DNA from: Ralstonia sp. 25mfcol4.1
GTDB taxonomy: Bacteria > Pseudomonadota > Gammaproteobacteria > Burkholderiales > Burkholderiaceae
DNA: 64,000 nucleotides
Direction: 5' to 3'
Assembly: GCF_900104095.1 (NCBI RefSeq)
Contig: NZ_FNJO01000005.1
Location: forward strand, 1 to 64,000
Shown in pieces: positions 25,481-31,669 of the stretch. Positions within the stretch are counted from its first letter, which is position 1; every line of letters starts with the position of its first letter. Under the pieces are notes generated by a model. The model did no database searches. It saw nothing but the letters and a program-made list of their open reading frames with translations, and had not been told where the DNA came from. The position numbers were made by a program, and so were the translations under genes.

Positions 25481-25531
25481 ATATCCATACTTTTGGAATA
25501 TGAATAGGTAGATTGGCATATATTTTACGTG
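25481..25531 (+). promoter_or_regulatory. Promoter module A of the tannase-like gene (dyad plus shared 16-bp box)
   Basis: A dyad TCCA-N6-TGGA (25484-25497, tccatacttttgga, inside atatcca...tggaatat) is followed after 18 bp by gcatatattttacgtg (25516-25531). The 16-bp box is identical to one before the hydrolase at 29425 and lies 72 bp from the start codon here, 74 bp there. TATATT within it resembles a -10 element. Confidence 0.6.
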
Positions 25532-25603
25532 GCATCACCCCGGTGATACCGTCTCGCTCCAGCATGCCGGCACAAGTACCGGCAGTACTGGAGGAGGCAA
25601 ACG

Positions 25604-28285
25604 ATGACAACCGGATACAAGGGCTGCCGCCCGGCGTGGCGGCTGGCCGCTGCATTTTCAGTGGCGCTGCTGGTCACCGCCTGCGGCGGCGGCGATGATG
25701 CACCCGCCACGGCCGGCACAGGAAATACGGGCAACGCCGGGGTCGGCGGTGACACGGGAACGGCACCGGCCGTCCCGGCGCTCAGTGCGCTGGAGGCCTG
25801 CAACGCGCTGAACGGTGCAAGCCTGCCGGCATCGAGCCTGGCCTTGGCTTCGGGCGGCGCCACCGTCAGCAAGGCCACGCTGATCGCGGCCGATGCCACC
25901 GGCAACACGCTGGGCGAGTACTGCCAGGTGCGCGGCGCGATTGCGCCGGTCGATGCGTCGGCGTCCAGCATCAACTTCGCCGTCAACCTGCCCACGCAGT
26001 GGAATGGCAAGGGCATCCAGTTCGGCGGCGGCGGTTTTGACGGCACGCTGATCGACGGCACCGAGACCGTGCGTTTTGCCTTGCCCGGCGACCCTGCACC
26101 GCTGTCGCGCGGCTACGCCACGTGGGGCGACGATTCGGGTCACCAGAGTTCCAGCATCACCGATGGCCGCTTTGCCACCAATGACGAGCAACTGGCCAAC
26201 TACGGCGGCGACACGCTCAAGAAGACGCACGATGTGGCGATCGCGCTGATCACCCAACGCTATGGCAAGGCGCCGGTGCGCGCGTATTTCCTCGGCACCT
26301 CGACGGGAGGCCGCGATGCGCTGAGCTATATCCAGCGATGGCCGGCGGACTACGCTGGCGTGATCGCCAATGAGCCCGCGCTCAACTACACGGGTACGCG
26401 GCTGTCAAACGTGGCCGTGGGCCGGGCGCTGTACCTCAATGGCGGCGCAGGCTGGCTCAATATCAACAAGACGCTGATGGTGCAGAAGGCGGCCATGGAT
26501 GCGTGCGACACGCTCGACGGCGTGGCCGACAAGGTCGTGAGCAATGTGGAAGGCTGCCGCGTGGGCGCCATGCAGGTGCTGGCCGGCCTGCGTTGTGCGG
26601 GCGGCGCCGATACCGGCGACACCTGCCTGTCCGATGCGCAGATCGCCACGGTCAAGACCATCGAGCAGCCGCTGCAGCTCGGCTATCCGCTGGCCAATGG
26701 CGTGACGGTTGCCGGCGGCTACAACCTCATGGAAGGCGCGCTGGTGGCGGGGCCGTTCACCACGCGCGACCTCGGCACGCGGGCGGTGCCTGGCAATCCG
26801 GCCACCACGGCCGACGCCAACATGTACGTGACCGGCGACCAGTGGGTCAAATACTTCGTCACCCGCAATGCCACGTTCGACGCGCTGACCTTCGATCCGG
26901 CCAGCCCGGGTAGCTGGACGTCGCGCGTGCAGGCCGTGTCGGCGCTGACCGACGCCACGAACCCCGACCTGTCCGCGTTCCTGGCCAGGGGCGGCCGGCT
27001 GATCATGCTGCACGGTCTGGCCGACGAGGTCATCAGCCCGAATTCCACCATCGCGTGGTACAAGGCCGTCATCGCGCGGGTGGGGCAGGCGGCCGTGGAC
27101 CAGGGCATCCGGTTCTACACCGTACCCGGCATGGGCCACGGTACGGGCAGCTTCCTGCCAGCGTGGAATTCGCTGACCGCACTCGAAAACTGGGTCGAGA
27201 TGGGCGTGGCGCCGGGCACCCGTGAAGTGATGGACACCAACGCGGGCACCTACGGCCGCACGCGGCCACTGTGCCAGTACCCGTCGTGGCCCAAGTACAA
27301 GGGCACCGGCAGCGCCGACGCGGCCATCAACTACACGTGCGAAGGCGCTTCGGGCATCGTGCAGTCCTGCCTGAACCTGCCGTCGGTGGCCACCACCTGG
27401 AAGGGCGGCAACACCAACGGCGAGGAATTGTCGGTCCGCATCGATCCCGCCACGCTCAAGTACACGGTGACGATCGATGCCAGCGCCCAGCGTGCGGCCA
27501 GCACCGTGCTGAGCGGACAGCTCGTCTCGCAGGGTGGCTGCACGTACGCCAGCGACGAAAATGGCGCGCAGTTCTCGTTGACCGGAGGCGGTGTGCTGGC
27601 GGGCGGCGTCAAGCCGGTATCGGGCGGCGGTTTCCTGCCGCTGGTGGCGTTCCAGACCGTCTCTGCCGACTACAAGGCGGTGGCCGATATCTACAACGTC
27701 AACGGTATCCAGACGGCCGTCGCAGACGGATCGGTCACGGTGCGAAATGGCTCGGCGCGGCTGCGGTCGTCGGCGGCCACCTGGCAGACGTGCGCGGCCA
27801 CGGCCAGCGGCGGCTATATCGTCTATGACGCGGCCTGCACGAACACGACCAAGGGCTACATCGTATGGAACGCTGCGCGCAACGCGTTCGATTACTTCGT
27901 GGGCGGCACCATCGCGGCGGGCGATGGCGTGTTGAGCGGGTCGCTGATCAGCGGCATGGTCAATGGTGCGCCGGTACCGGTGCTCCTGACGCGGTCGGCC
28001 ACAGCGTACGGCATGAACATCTACGCCCAGCAATCGACGGCGGGCCTGGCGACCGGCGCGGCCGATGGTGCCTATCGCGTGATGGCCACCACCGGCGAAC
28101 AGGTCAATGCCGCCCTGAACGGCACGAGCATCGTGCGTAACGGAGCGTCGGGCGCGCTGGCCTACAACAGTCCGGTGCCAGGCGTGATCGGAGCAACGGG
28201 TGGGGTGGTGGCGTCCTACCTGTACAACAGCGGCCTGCTGATCGGCACGGCCGCCGGGCGTTTCGAGATCGGGTTGCTGCACTGA
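25604..28285 (+). CDS. Tannase/feruloyl-esterase-family lipoprotein with long C-terminal extension
   Basis: An 893-residue outer-membrane-type lipoprotein. The signal ends in LLVTACGGG, with the lipid cysteine at 27. Residues about 65-590 form a tannase/feruloyl esterase alpha/beta hydrolase: nucleophile S233 in FLGTSTGGRDAL, then LIMLHGLADEVISPNSTIAWY and the closing His in VPGMGHGTGS, with Cys pairs typical of the family. It should cleave ester bonds of aromatic acids. About 300 further residues, rich in Gly, Ser and Thr with strand-like repeats, follow (SGIVQSCLNLP onward); I do not recognise that domain. ATG 25604 has ggagg at 25590. It lies after pobA, so it may release hydroxybenzoate-type acids from esters outside the cell. 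Confidence 0.85.
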   Translation: MTTGYKGCRPAWRLAAAFSVALLVTACGGGDDAPATAGTGNTGNAGVGGDTGTAPAVPALSALEACNALNGASLPASSLALASGGATVSKATLIAADATGNTLGEYCQVRGAIAPVDASASSINFAVNLPTQWNGKGIQFGGGGFDGTLIDGTETVRFALPGDPAPLSRGYATWGDDSGHQSSSITDGRFATNDEQLANYGGDTLKKTHDVAIALITQRYGKAPVRAYFLGTSTGGRDALSYIQRWPADYAGVIANEPALNYTGTRLSNVAVGRALYLNGGAGWLNINKTLMVQKAAMDACDTLDGVADKVVSNVEGCRVGAMQVLAGLRCAGGADTGDTCLSDAQIATVKTIEQPLQLGYPLANGVTVAGGYNLMEGALVAGPFTTRDLGTRAVPGNPATTADANMYVTGDQWVKYFVTRNATFDALTFDPASPGSWTSRVQAVSALTDATNPDLSAFLARGGRLIMLHGLADEVISPNSTIAWYKAVIARVGQAAVDQGIRFYTVPGMGHGTGSFLPAWNSLTALENWVEMGVAPGTREVMDTNAGTYGRTRPLCQYPSWPKYKGTGSADAAINYTCEGASGIVQSCLNLPSVATTWKGGNTNGEELSVRIDPATLKYTVTIDASAQRAASTVLSGQLVSQGGCTYASDENGAQFSLTGGGVLAGGVKPVSGGGFLPLVAFQTVSADYKAVADIYNVNGIQTAVADGSVTVRNGSARLRSSAATWQTCAATASGGYIVYDAACTNTTKGYIVWNAARNAFDYFVGGTIAAGDGVLSGSLISGMVNGAPVPVLLTRSATAYGMNIYAQQSTAGLATGAADGAYRVMATTGEQVNAALNGTSIVRNGASGALAYNSPVPGVIGATGGVVASYLYNSGLLIGTAAGRFEIGLLH

Positions 28286-28303
28286 CGCCCGCCGCGCTGC
28301 CAA

Positions 28304-28342
28304 GGGACCGCCCCTGTGCTCGCGGGGGAGTGGGGCGATCCC
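28304..28342. terminator. Imperfect hairpin after the tannase-like gene
   Basis: Arms gggaccgcccc (28304-28314) and ggggcgatccc (28332-28342) match at ten of eleven pairs, between convergent genes. No T run. Confidence 0.4.
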
Positions 28343-28351
28343 GGCTGGCAG

Positions 28352-29299
28352 CTATTCTTCGTCCTGCGATTTCTTGCGATGGCGCGTGGCGATGCGGTGG
28401 GTCAGTGCCACCAGCGCCGTCAGCGCGGCGTCATCCTGGCCCTCGCGGTAGCCGAGCGTCAGCGGCGCGCGAAGCCGGTCGGCCTCGACCATCCGGCAGT
28501 AGGCCACGCCGTGACGGTTCAGGCCGGCCATCGATGCCGGCACCACACTGACGCCAGCGCCGGCCGCCACGAGATTCAGGTTGGTCAGCATCCGTTCGAC
28601 TTCTGCGCCGATGCGCGGCGTGAAGCCCAGGGCCTCGCATTCGCGCAGCAGGTCGCCGTACATGCCCGGTGCGCCCGGTCGCCGCACCAGGATGAACGGA
28701 TCGGATGCCAGCTCGCTCAGCGACACAGGTGCCGCAGCGTTCTGCCCGCGCAAGGCACGGCGCCGCAGCAGGGCGTGATCGAGCGGCAACGCAATCACCA
28801 TCTCCTCTTCCAGCAACAGGTCGAAGCGCACGCCCTCGGGATGCAGTACCGGCGCGCGCAGCAGGGCGGCGTTCAGCGTGCCGTCGGCAAGCCGTTCGAT
28901 CGCTTCCGCCGCGTTGCATTCGGTCAGGGACAGCGCCACACGCGGAAAGTGCCGGCGGCATGCCCGCAGTACTTCGGGCGTGAGCTTGTGCGCGGCCGCG
29001 GAACTGGTGAAGCCGATGGCCAGGGCGCCTTCGTCTCCCCGCGCCATGCGCTGCATGCGTGCGCGCATCTGATCGATCCGGGCGAACAGGTCCACCGCAT
29101 CGGCATGGAGCGCAGTGCCGGCAGGCGTCAGCGCCACGCCGCGCGGCAGCCGTTCGAACAGGGTCACGCCGAGTTCCGCTTCCAGCACCTTGAGCTGCTG
29201 CGAAAGAGGAGGCTGCTGGATGCCGAGCTGTTCGGCGGCGCGCGTGACGGAACGGGTCTCCGCCACGGCCAGGAAGTAACGCAGGTGTCTCAGCTCCAT
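28352..29299 (-). CDS. LysR-family regulator between two exported hydrolases
   Basis: A 315-residue LysR regulator beginning MELRHLRYFLAVAETRSVTR with recognition helix IQQPPLSQQLKVLEAELG, a CatM/BenM-like head. ATG 29299 is chosen over 29338, which adds 13 residues. It lies convergent to the tannase-like gene and divergent from the hydrolase at 29425; both of those promoters share an exact 16-bp box with a LysR-type dyad just upstream, so it is the best candidate to control both. The effector is not known. Confidence 0.88.
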   Translation of the reverse strand: MELRHLRYFLAVAETRSVTRAAEQLGIQQPPLSQQLKVLEAELGVTLFERLPRGVALTPAGTALHADAVDLFARIDQMRARMQRMARGDEGALAIGFTSSAAAHKLTPEVLRACRRHFPRVALSLTECNAAEAIERLADGTLNAALLRAPVLHPEGVRFDLLLEEEMVIALPLDHALLRRRALRGQNAAAPVSLSELASDPFILVRRPGAPGMYGDLLRECEALGFTPRIGAEVERMLTNLNLVAAGAGVSVVPASMAGLNRHGVAYCRMVEADRLRAPLTLGYREGQDDAALTALVALTHRIATRHRKKSQDEE

Positions 29300-29308
29300 C
29301 GATATATA

Positions 29309-29350
29309 TCCAAGAAATATGGAAGTCTTGTGATGCATATATTTTACGTG
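29309..29350 (+). promoter_or_regulatory. Promoter module B of the hydrolase gene (dyad plus shared 16-bp box)
   Basis: The dyad TCCA-N7-TGGA (29309-29323, tccaagaaatatgga) is followed after 11 bp by gcatatattttacgtg (29335-29350), identical to module A. It lies between the divergent LysR gene and ATG 29425, and so can serve both. Confidence 0.6.
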
Positions 29351-29424
29351 CGGCCGGCATGGTCGTAGTATTGGCGTTTCGCCCGATGCGCGCGGGCGGC
29401 CAGAACATCAAAGGAGACACCTTC

Positions 29425-30552
29425 ATGCGCCGCATTACGCAATATTTGCCCGTCATCGCCGTGGTCGCGGCGGGCGCGGTGCTGGCCGGTTGTGCCGGCC
29501 AGACCGGCACAACGGCGGCCACGGCGGCCACGGCTGCCACACCGGGCGCGGCCGCGGTCAAGCCGCAATGGCAGCGCGTGCACCTGGGCAAAGGGGCGGG
29601 CTATGACTTCCCGGTCTATGCGAATCACGCGCTCAATGGCGACCTGCGCGCGATCCGGGAGGTGGTATTCGTCCAGCATGGCTTGCAGCGCAATGGCGAC
29701 GACTATTACGACGCTGGCGCAGGCTTGTTGAAGGCCAGCGGCCGGAACCCCGACGAGGTGCTGCTGGTGGCGCCCAATTTCCCGGGCACGCCCGACGCCG
29801 CCAAGCATTTCGACAACATGCCGGTGTGGACCGTGCAGGGCTGGATCGGCGGCGACGACGCGGTGTCCGGCCCCGGCGCCGGCGTCAGTTCGCTGCAGGT
29901 GCTCGACGATCTGCTGGCCTTCGTCACCGACAGGCAGCGCCTGCCGATGGTGCGCCAGGTCACCGTGGCCGGCCATTCGGGCGGGGCGCAGATCGTGCAT
30001 CGGTATGCCGTGCTGAACAACGTGGACGAAAAGGTGCGGGCGTCCGGCATCGACCTGCGCTACGTCGTGGCCAATCCGTCGTCCTATCTGTACTTCACGC
30101 CGGATCGCCCGGTGGCGCCTGACTACCGCCGCTTCGCGCCATACAGCGCCAGTACCTGCGCCGACTACGACAAGTACCGCTATGGCATGCGCGACATGGT
30201 GGCTTACGCGCGCGGCGCCGATGGCATGACGCTTTATCGGCGCTACATGCAGCGCCAGGTCACTTACATGGTGGGCAGCGACGACAACGATCCGAACCAT
30301 CGGGTGCTGGACAAGGCTTGCGGCGCTGAAGCGGAAGGCCCCACGCGCCTGCAGCGGGCACGCGCTTACTGGCGCTACGAGCAGGTGCTGGCCGCGCCGG
30401 GGCAGGCCAGCGCGCACCGGTCGTTCGAGGTGGTGGGCGTGGGGCATGACCAGGCCCGCATGTTTGGTTCGCAGTGCGGCGCGCAGGCGGTCTTCGGCAT
30501 GGACCCCGCAGTCAACGGGAAGGGGGCGGCCTGTCGCGCCCCGCAGCAGTGA
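29425..30552 (+). CDS. Lipoprotein alpha/beta hydrolase
   Basis: A 375-residue predicted lipoprotein. The signal ends VLAGCAG with lipid cysteine C23, followed by an Ala/Thr-rich linker. The hydrolase fold shows VVFVQHGLQRNGDDYY (oxyanion loop), nucleophile S185 in VAGHSGGAQIVHR, NPSSYLYF, and the likely catalytic His in VVGVGHDQARMF near the end. ATG 29425 follows aaaggagacacc. It shares its promoter box with the tannase-like gene at 25604, suggesting that both act on related extracytoplasmic esters. The exact family is not recognised. Confidence 0.8.
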   Translation: MRRITQYLPVIAVVAAGAVLAGCAGQTGTTAATAATAATPGAAAVKPQWQRVHLGKGAGYDFPVYANHALNGDLRAIREVVFVQHGLQRNGDDYYDAGAGLLKASGRNPDEVLLVAPNFPGTPDAAKHFDNMPVWTVQGWIGGDDAVSGPGAGVSSLQVLDDLLAFVTDRQRLPMVRQVTVAGHSGGAQIVHRYAVLNNVDEKVRASGIDLRYVVANPSSYLYFTPDRPVAPDYRRFAPYSASTCADYDKYRYGMRDMVAYARGADGMTLYRRYMQRQVTYMVGSDDNDPNHRVLDKACGAEAEGPTRLQRARAYWRYEQVLAAPGQASAHRSFEVVGVGHDQARMFGSQCGAQAVFGMDPAVNGKGAACRAPQQ

Positions 30553-30664
30553 GATGACGGGCGCTCGGACACGTTGACGTCGTCCGGGCGGGTTTGTCCC
30601 GGCGGCGGACGTTGGCCGGCGGTGCTACGATGCCGCAGTTTTCCCGATTCGTGCCGCCGCCTTC

Positions 30665-31669
30665 ATGTCAGTTCCCGCTCGCCGGCGCGTCACCGCGGCA
30701 TTGCTGGCCATGCCGTTCGCGCGTCCCTGGCGGCCTGCCGCCGCTGCCCCGTTCCCGTCTCACGTTCCGCCCCTGCATCTATTGGTAGGCTATGCCGCCG
30801 GTGGCGGTGCGGACCACGTCGCACGCATCGTGGCGGACAGTCTTGGCGGCGACGGCGAGCCCACGATCGTCGACAATCGACCGGGCGCCTCCGGCCAGAT
30901 TGCGATGCACGAAGCCGCACGCGCCGGCGCCGACCGCCAGACGCTGCTGCTGGGCACGGTCGGCTCCGTTAGTATCGGGCCGCTGCTGGCCAGCAGCCCC
31001 GAGGCGCCGGCGCGCCAACTACAACCGCTGGCGATCGTTGCCAGCACGCCTCACGTGTTGCTGATGGCTGGCGACGGCACACACGCGCAGCCGGAGCAGG
31101 CACGCGCGACGTTGCAACGCCTGCTCGACGATGCGCGGCAACGTCCCGGCGAAATCGCCTATGCCTCGCTTGGCATTCATTCCAGCGCTCATCTGGTGGG
31201 TGAACTGATGTGCCGGCAGGCCGGCGTTTCCCTGGCACATGTTCCGTATCCCGGCAGCGCGCGTGCGCTGGTGGACTTGCAGGGCGGACACGTGGCTGTG
31301 CTCGTCAGTACGCTGCAGGCCGCGTTGCCACTGATGCGGCAGGGCCGCGTGCGTGCCCTGGCGGTGACGGGCAGGGTGCGAAGTCCGCTGGCGCCGGCGG
31401 TCCCGACATTCGCCGAAGCGGGCATCGTCGGCATGCAGCAAGACGCCTGGTATGGCGTGCTGGCGTCTCCTGGCGTGCCAGAGGCACGCCGCATCGCGTT
31501 GTCAGCACGACTGACCCGACTGCTGCGCGAGCCATCGCTGCGGCAGCGCCTGGCACAGGACGGCGCCGAGCCGCTGAGCCTGACCGGCCGTCAGGCCATC
31601 GACTATCTCGACCAGCAGCGCGAAGTGTGGCGCCAAGCGTTGGCGGTGGTGTCGGGCCGGCTGGGCTGA
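30665..31669 (+). CDS. Bug/TctC-family substrate-binding protein, divergent member
   Basis: A 334-residue Bug-like protein. It keeps LHLLVGYAAGGGADHVARIVADSL, VDNRPGASGQIAMHEAA and AHVPYPGSARALVDLQGGHV, but the YPxRPI opening and the KG of PYKGSAPA are changed. The N-terminus has an arginine-rich, alanine-containing signal (SVPARRRVTAALLAMPF...). It has no neighbour of obvious catabolic role in the same direction, being 112 bp after the hydrolase. ATG 30665 has no strong ribosome site. Confidence 0.85.
   Translation: MSVPARRRVTAALLAMPFARPWRPAAAAPFPSHVPPLHLLVGYAAGGGADHVARIVADSLGGDGEPTIVDNRPGASGQIAMHEAARAGADRQTLLLGTVGSVSIGPLLASSPEAPARQLQPLAIVASTPHVLLMAGDGTHAQPEQARATLQRLLDDARQRPGEIAYASLGIHSSAHLVGELMCRQAGVSLAHVPYPGSARALVDLQGGHVAVLVSTLQAALPLMRQGRVRALAVTGRVRSPLAPAVPTFAEAGIVGMQQDAWYGVLASPGVPEARRIALSARLTRLLREPSLRQRLAQDGAEPLSLTGRQAIDYLDQQREVWRQALAVVSGRLG

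What the first reader, a model, noticed from the sequence alone, without database searches (positions are those of the whole stretch)
25481..29350. Two exported hydrolases share an identical 16-bp promoter box and a similar dyad, flanking one LysR gene
gcatatattttacgtg occurs at 25516-25531 and 29335-29350, 72 and 74 bp before the start codons of the tannase-like lipoprotein (25604) and the alpha/beta-hydrolase lipoprotein (29425). A TCCA-N6/7-TGGA dyad lies just upstream of both. A 16-bp exact match in AT-poor DNA at nearly equal distance from two genes, with the LysR gene between them, points to one regulon of extracellular ester hydrolysis that would feed pobA and pca products inside the cell.
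Basis: partly seen in the sequence, partly recalled or inferred. Interest (0 to 1): 0.72.

Follow-up and report, generated by a model that had tools for sequence, protein, structure and literature searches.

The report
LysR switch for two exported esterases
Two secreted-enzyme genes on either side of one regulator gene carry the same precisely spaced control site, and related bacteria keep similar genes together as one operon behind one such site, so they very probably form one small regulon of an ordinary kind.

Summary
In detail: the 16-mer occurs exactly twice in the 6.34-Mb genome. It is one piece of a rigidly spaced element, ATAY-N7-RTAT-N15-CATATATTTTAC, which holds a -35-like hexamer and is followed 17 nt on by a -10-like one. 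The element occurs only at these two promoters here. In Cupriavidus it is present in 22 of 22 genomes where the LysR orthologue was found and 0 of 37 others, only before these two genes. The dyad lies near -65 and the box near -34 of the predicted starts, the usual LysR layout. In three other genera a LysR homologue sits beside one copy that precedes a transporter-hydrolase-tannase operon (19 of 22 selected loci). In Cupriavidus the two enzymes stand apart, each with its own copy, and a TctC receptor gene follows the hydrolase (14 of 15 LysR-bearing, 0 of 15 LysR-less genomes examined). Best reading: a LysR activator regulon for exported ester hydrolysis and uptake. Binding, ligand and substrate are untested; the link to pobA/pca is only adjacency within the genus.

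The parts
25487..25501 (+). Predicted LysR recognition site of the tannase promoter, ATAC-N7-ATAT, centre about -65 of the predicted start
   Evidence: ATAY-N7-RTAT at this fixed spacing in 17 of 17 tannase promoters
25517..25528 (+). CATATATTTTAC core of the reported box; predicted activation site overlapping the -35
   Evidence: exact in 17 of 17 tannase promoters; composite found at only two places in the genome
25524..25529 (+). Predicted -35, TTTACG
   Evidence: 17 nt before the -10-like hexamer; consensus inference
25547..25552 (+). Predicted -10, TACCGT; predicted start of transcription about 25559
   Evidence: TACCGT in 17 of 17; consensus inference
25604..28285 (+). Tannase/feruloyl-esterase/MHETase-family lipoprotein, 893 aa; residues from about 581 on form an extension without a Pfam match
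   Evidence: Pfam Tannase E 4.6e-125; best solved relatives are MHETases; extension; lipobox by eye
28352..29299 (-). LysR-type regulator, 315 aa, divergent from the hydrolase gene
   Evidence: Pfam HTH_1 and LysR_substrate; nearest solved relatives 7w06, then CatM and BenM
29306..29320 (+). Predicted LysR recognition site of the hydrolase promoter, ATAT-N7-ATAT, 6 nt from the LysR start codon
   Evidence: ATAY-N7-RTAT at this fixed spacing in 22 of 22 hydrolase promoters
29336..29347 (+). CATATATTTTAC core of the second box; predicted activation site overlapping the predicted -35 (29343-29348, TTTACG)
   Evidence: exact in 14 of 22 hydrolase promoters, 1-4 mismatches in 8 of 22
29366..29371 (+). 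Predicted -10, TAGTAT; predicted start of transcription about 29378
   Evidence: TANNNT in 20 of 22; consensus inference
29425..30552 (+). Alpha/beta-hydrolase lipoprotein, 375 aa
   Evidence: Pfam Abhydrolase_6 E 3.5e-6; weak relatives 3d0k and 6ve6; LAGC lipobox and GHSGG motif by eye
30665..31669 (+). TctC-type solute receptor, probable further member of the hydrolase transcription unit (112-nt gap)
   Evidence: Pfam TctC; follows the hydrolase in 14 of 15 LysR-bearing and 0 of 15 LysR-less genomes examined; no terminator-like site in 29250-30700

Best explanation
The two boxes are the activation-site/-35 parts of two LysR-type activator promoters run by the LysR protein encoded between them. 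Each promoter has a recognition dyad CATAY-N7-RTATG (TATAT-N7-ATATG on the hydrolase side here) centred near -65 of the predicted start; then, about 31 bp further on (three helix turns), the box CATATATTTTACG, which covers the -35; then a 17-nt spacer and a -10 of the form TANNNT. A LysR tetramer would bind both parts and, with its ligand (probably a product of the hydrolases), recruit RNA polymerase. The regulon is: exported tannase-family esterase; exported alpha/beta-hydrolase with, probably, a TctC receptor; and probably the regulator itself, because the hydrolase-side dyad lies directly upstream of its start codon. Other genera hold homologous genes as one operon (LysR, divergent from transporter-hydrolase-tannase) behind one such site, so the Cupriavidus arrangement looks like a split operon whose two halves each keep a copy of the control element. 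Shown: element, spacing, conservation, co-occurrence, linkage in gene order. Inferred: binding, activation, ligand, substrate, autoregulation, co-transcription and the direction of the split.
For: Box: 2 exact copies in the genome. Composite: 2 sites, no other at up to 3 mismatches, control 0. Dyad at the fixed position in 39 of 39 promoters; box core exact in 31 of 39. Mean commonest-base frequency 0.96-0.98 in half-sites and box against 0.51-0.52 in the N7 and N15 spacers (the rows are lined up on the best box match, which favours the box but not the half-sites). Between the window's own two promoters the spacers match at only 2 of 7 and 5 of 15 positions, so they are no recent duplicate. 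Composite in 22 of 22 Cupriavidus genomes with a LysR match and 0 of 37 others; its 37 sites there are 17 tannase and 20 hydrolase promoters. Tannase orthologue in 17 of those 22 and 0 of 38 others. Outside the genus, of 44 sites examined 27 have a divergent LysR gene starting 4-45 nt away and 4 lie about 90 nt upstream of a LysR gene. LysR, transporter, hydrolase, tannase in this order at 19 of 22 selected loci, including 9 of the 11 whose neighbours I had not looked at before. The LysR and tannase of one such operon find the window's genes as best and as only match in this genome at the cut-offs used. The geometry agrees with the LysR scheme in passages of PMC9942251 and PMC6628147.
Against: No binding, expression or mutant data. 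The dyad register was chosen after seeing the Cupriavidus sequences, so only later searches with the fixed pattern are independent. Genomes are related, so the co-occurrence counts are not independent events, and the hydrolase-side element adjoins LysR, so one deletion removes both (as in G047). The LysR search scored only 37 candidates per genome, so absence is not exhaustive. 5 of 22 LysR-bearing genomes have no tannase orthologue. In 8 of 22 hydrolase promoters the box core has 1-4 mismatches, and G027 and G030 lack a TANNNT -10. The same composite occurs beside LysR genes with other neighbours, so it marks a group of LysR regulators rather than ester hydrolysis as such. The window's box shows no clear dyad of its own. 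A consensus scan of 29250-30700 listed no promoter; I take this to fit a weak, activator-dependent promoter.
Confidence: 0.87

Rival explanations
1. The element binds another regulator, and the LysR gene is only a neighbour.
For: No binding data; this genome encodes at least six other LysR-like proteins, 36-39% identical to the LysR of a related operon.
Against: 22 of 22 against 0 of 37 co-occurrence; LysR genes beside 31 of 44 sites outside the genus; dyad of T-N11-A type as in LysR sites (passage).
Confidence: 0.07
2. The two boxes are plain core-promoter sequence kept by a recent duplication, without shared regulation.
For: The box contains a -35-like hexamer and is followed by a -10-like one.
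Against: Spacers have diverged to near-random identity while half-sites and box stay; in 17 LysR-less genomes whose hydrolase upstream was read (of 23 that have the gene), the best match misses 8-11 of 20 positions.
Confidence: 0.03
3. The 16-bp identity is chance.
For: At up to 2 mismatches the 16-mer alone hits about as many genus genomes as its reversed control (23 and 22 of 60).
Confidence: 0.005
4. The LysR protein mainly represses, for example by blocking the -35 until the ligand arrives.
For: The box overlaps the -35; CatM and BenM are reported to repress without effector through another pair of sites (passage of PMC6628147).
Against: Dyad near -65 and weak -35/-10 fit activation better (inference from known LysR promoters).
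Confidence: 0.12

Closest known systems
CatM/BenM promoters (catB, benA) of Acinetobacter
   Same: CatM and BenM are among the nearest solved relatives of the LysR protein; site 1 fits ATAC-N7-GTAT with T-N11-A; [quoted passage not shown] in catB the 3' half of site 2 is degenerate (passages of PMC6628147)
   Different: Targets are benzoate/catechol genes; here exported hydrolases; box sequence CATATATTTTAC and two separate promoters around one LysR gene
GalR-gal operon of Pseudomonas putida
   Same: LysR activator whose recognition and activation sites were deduced by aligning intergenic regions of relatives (passages of PMC9942251)
   Different: Targets gallate catabolism genes, not a tannase; different half-sites
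CatR/ClcR-type LysR sites of Betaproteobacteria
   Same: T-N11-A inverted repeats, regulator divergent from target (passages of PMC6449761)
   Different: Consensus AkACC-N5-GGTAT; the word tannase does not occur in that paper's main text
MHETase and feruloyl esterases (tannase family)
   Same: Nearest solved relatives of residues 55-580 of the tannase-like protein
   Different: About 310 further residues without a Pfam match; substrate unknown

Membership tests
LysR-type transcriptional regulator (protein) | HTH_1 and LysR substrate domain | tested here: met
LysR-type activated promoter | T-N11-A dyad recognition site | tested here: met
   ATAY-N7-RTAT in 39 of 39 promoters
LysR-type activated promoter | recognition site near -65 and activation site near -35 | tested here: inconclusive
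   fits the predicted starts, but starts are not mapped
LysR-type activated promoter | dyad symmetry in the activation site | tested here: not met
   in the window the box reads ATAT-N7-GTGG and ATAT-N7-GTGC, without T-N11-A (by eye); a degenerate activation site is reported for catB (passage)
LysR-type activated promoter | binding and ligand-dependent activation | not testable with these tools
   needs bench work
Single regulon (tannase, hydrolase, LysR) | shared element limited to these genes | tested here: met
   2 sites in this genome; 37 of 37 sites in 59 genus genomes
Single regulon (tannase, hydrolase, LysR) | linkage in relatives with a different gene order | tested here: met
   19 of 22 selected loci
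Tannase family (PF07519) | full-length domain match | tested here: met
   profile positions 1-489 of 490
pobA/pca genes as members of the same regulon | the same element before pob/pca genes | tested here: not met
   no third composite in the genome at up to 3 mismatches

The most novel reading that the evidence does not exclude
A transporter-hydrolase-tannase operon under one LysR switch was taken apart in Cupriavidus: the tannase came to lie across its own regulator, both halves carried or rebuilt the same composite operator-promoter, and the importer was exchanged for a TctC receptor. The composite, ATAY-N7-RTAT-N15 followed by an ATAT/TTTTAC-type box, operator and -35 fused at fixed spacing, is a signature of a whole group of Burkholderiaceae LysR regulators, so that regulons can be read from DNA alone; in one other genus it also marks a remote hydrolase gene (11 loci).
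Probability: 0.5. Interest if true: 0.52.

Novelty: new member of a known kind. Interest (0 to 1): 0.42.

Why it matters
It gives an exact operator-promoter for a LysR regulon of exported ester hydrolases (MHETase and feruloyl-esterase relatives) in Cupriavidus, with a gene list that can be tested at the bench. It also looks like a clear natural case of an operon divided while its control element stayed the same, and the fixed-spacing composite makes targets of related LysR regulators findable across the family.

Tried and rejected
TCCA-N6/7-TGGA as the regulator dyad: rejected, its distance to the box differs between the two promoters and the register is not the conserved one. The box as a -10: rejected in favour of a -35 inside it, since TANNNT stands 17 nt downstream in 37 of 39 promoters. 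The box alone as a genus-wide marker: too weak. TAL-effector matches: taken as composition artefacts, not followed. Structure models of the hydrolase (mean pLDDT 51.8) and of the tannase extension (41.6): too poor, so no fold search was made. A close homologue of the other genera's transporter in this genome: best match 45% identical with one stop inside, no composite element outside the two promoters; no match in the window with the L169 transporter as query.

Literature: tannase+LysR+Cupriavidus (1 paper, passages read); tannase+LysR+Burkholderia+operon (3 papers listed, passages of one read, none of them on such a regulon); LysR+MHETase+regulator+promoter (1 paper, listing only). These searches showed no description of this regulon; the library lacks most subscription journals. 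Other searches: listings only; listing; passages of one paper; listing; passages of one paper. No paper was read whole.
Full report
OBSERVATION. The 16-mer is exact at both places, 72 and 74 nt before the two start codons. It is beyond chance in the window (2 found, 0.04 expected at up to 3 mismatches) and in the genome (2 exact copies in 6.34 Mb; 2 more with 3 mismatches; 4 control hits at up to 3 mismatches).

ANATOMY. I read the upstream regions of 17 tannase orthologues and 22 hydrolase orthologues from Cupriavidus genomes with the LysR orthologue (the genus name comes from the named loci). Lined up on the box, each of the 39 has ATAY-N7-RTAT ending 15 nt before CATATATTTTAC. I chose that register. 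The core is exact in 17 of 17 tannase and 14 of 22 hydrolase promoters; the other 8 have 1 to 4 mismatches. Half-sites and box have mean commonest-base frequencies of 0.96-0.98, the N7 and N15 spacers 0.51-0.52. The box holds a -35-like hexamer (TTTACG in the window), with TACCGT (17 of 17 tannase) or TANNNT (20 of 22 hydrolase; not G027, G030) 17 nt further on. With a start predicted 7 nt past the -10, the dyad centre lies at about -65 and the box centre near -34. That is the usual LysR layout of recognition and activation sites (passages of PMC9942251, and PMC6628147; the -65 figure is from general knowledge). The starts are predictions.

SPECIFICITY. With the composite fixed, this genome has two sites at up to 3 mismatches and the reversed control none. 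Of 398 family genomes, 103 have a site at up to 2 mismatches; the reversed control hits 2 genomes. In the 59 genus genomes of that draw, sites occur in 22, the same 22 in which the LysR orthologue was found (which scored 37 candidates per genome), and in none of the other 37; one further genome without a LysR match, G048, was not drawn. The 37 sites are 17 tannase and 20 of the 22 hydrolase promoters, by coordinates. The tannase orthologue (77% identity or more) is in 17 of 60 genomes, all with LysR; 5 of the 22 LysR-bearing genomes lack it; the hydrolase is in 45 of 60. In 17 LysR-less genomes (of 23 that have the hydrolase) the hydrolase upstream region was read; the best match misses 8-11 of 20 positions. 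In G047 the LysR 5' part and the element are gone, while a LysR remnant and the -10-like hexamer remain. The genomes are related, so these are not independent events.

BEYOND THE GENUS. Of 44 sites in 43 loci from other genera, 27 have a divergent LysR homologue starting 4-45 nt to the left; 4 lie about 90 nt upstream of a LysR gene; 11 precede a hydrolase of another kind with no LysR match in the 3-kb locus; 1 precedes a porin-transporter-hydrolase-hydrolase run near a LysR gene (L169); and 1 (L173) has only a weak LysR match, 33% identical, 175 nt away. At 19 of 22 selected loci the order is LysR, site, transporter, homologue of the window's hydrolase (39-41% identical), homologue of the window's tannase (56-63%); these lie in three genera by the handles. 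Neighbours of 11 of the 22 had not been looked at before, and 9 of these 11 show the full order. The exceptions are L199 and L207 (no tannase match) and L208 (no LysR at the site, a partial hydrolase match). Porin-hydrolase-transporter-hydrolase variants also occur (L182, L183, L186). The LysR of L181 has the window's LysR as best match in this genome by a wide margin (270 against 159 bits), and its tannase has the window's tannase as its only match. So the pairing of the two enzymes with this regulator does not rest on the box alone. The element also occurs beside LysR genes with other neighbours, for example a chromate-transporter-like gene (named by eye), so it marks a group of LysR proteins.

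WIDER UNIT. A TctC-type receptor gene follows the hydrolase by 98-314 nt in 14 of 15 LysR-bearing genomes examined (not in L180) and in 0 of 15 LysR-less ones (about 1.5 kb held downstream in these; 8 kb in a second locus of one). No terminator-like site was found in 29250-30700. It probably belongs to the hydrolase unit and may stand in for the transporter of the other genera, which has no close homologue in this genome (best 45%, with a stop inside).

MECHANISM AND LIMITS. Most likely a LysR tetramer spans the dyad and the box and activates both promoters when a ligand binds. It probably also controls its own gene, since the hydrolase-side dyad ends 6 nt from its start codon. Binding, ligand and direction of control are not shown. 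The tannase-like protein is nearest to MHETases and feruloyl esterases among solved structures. pobA lies next to the tannase in 8 of 9 relatives' loci with enough flank (not in L188), but no pob/pca homologue was found in the 25 loci of other genera scanned, and no third composite stands anywhere in this genome. Feeding of pobA/pca is possible but unproven.

VERDICT. An ordinary kind of control (LysR activator promoter), a regulon that I did not find described, and what looks like an operon and its divided counterpart keeping the same element.

Noticed in passing
window 30665-31669: TctC receptor gene follows the hydrolase where the LysR gene is present (14 of 15 genomes examined) and not where it is absent (0 of 15).
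   Followed up: partly
window 27344-28285: About 310-residue C-terminal extension of the tannase-like protein, conserved in 9 Cupriavidus relatives aligned, no Pfam match, not present in the tannase homologues of L181 and L185 (560 and 574 aa); low-confidence beta-rich model.
   Followed up: partly
L140-L148, L152, L156, at about 1501: Same composite element upstream of a different hydrolase gene with no LysR match in the 3-kb locus, a likely remote regulon member in one other genus.
   Followed up: partly
L051 and L179 (G047): The tannase, the LysR 5' part and the element are missing while the hydrolase, its -10-like hexamer and a LysR remnant remain.
   Followed up: partly
L161, L162, L171, L172: Variant element with CATATATTGGAC beside LysR genes of other genera; a chromate-transporter-like gene (by eye) follows in L161 and L162.
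   Followed up: no
L185 251-2629: Genes that look like maleylacetate reductase and an intradiol dioxygenase (named by eye) beside the operon, a hint of phenolic catabolism.
   Followed up: no
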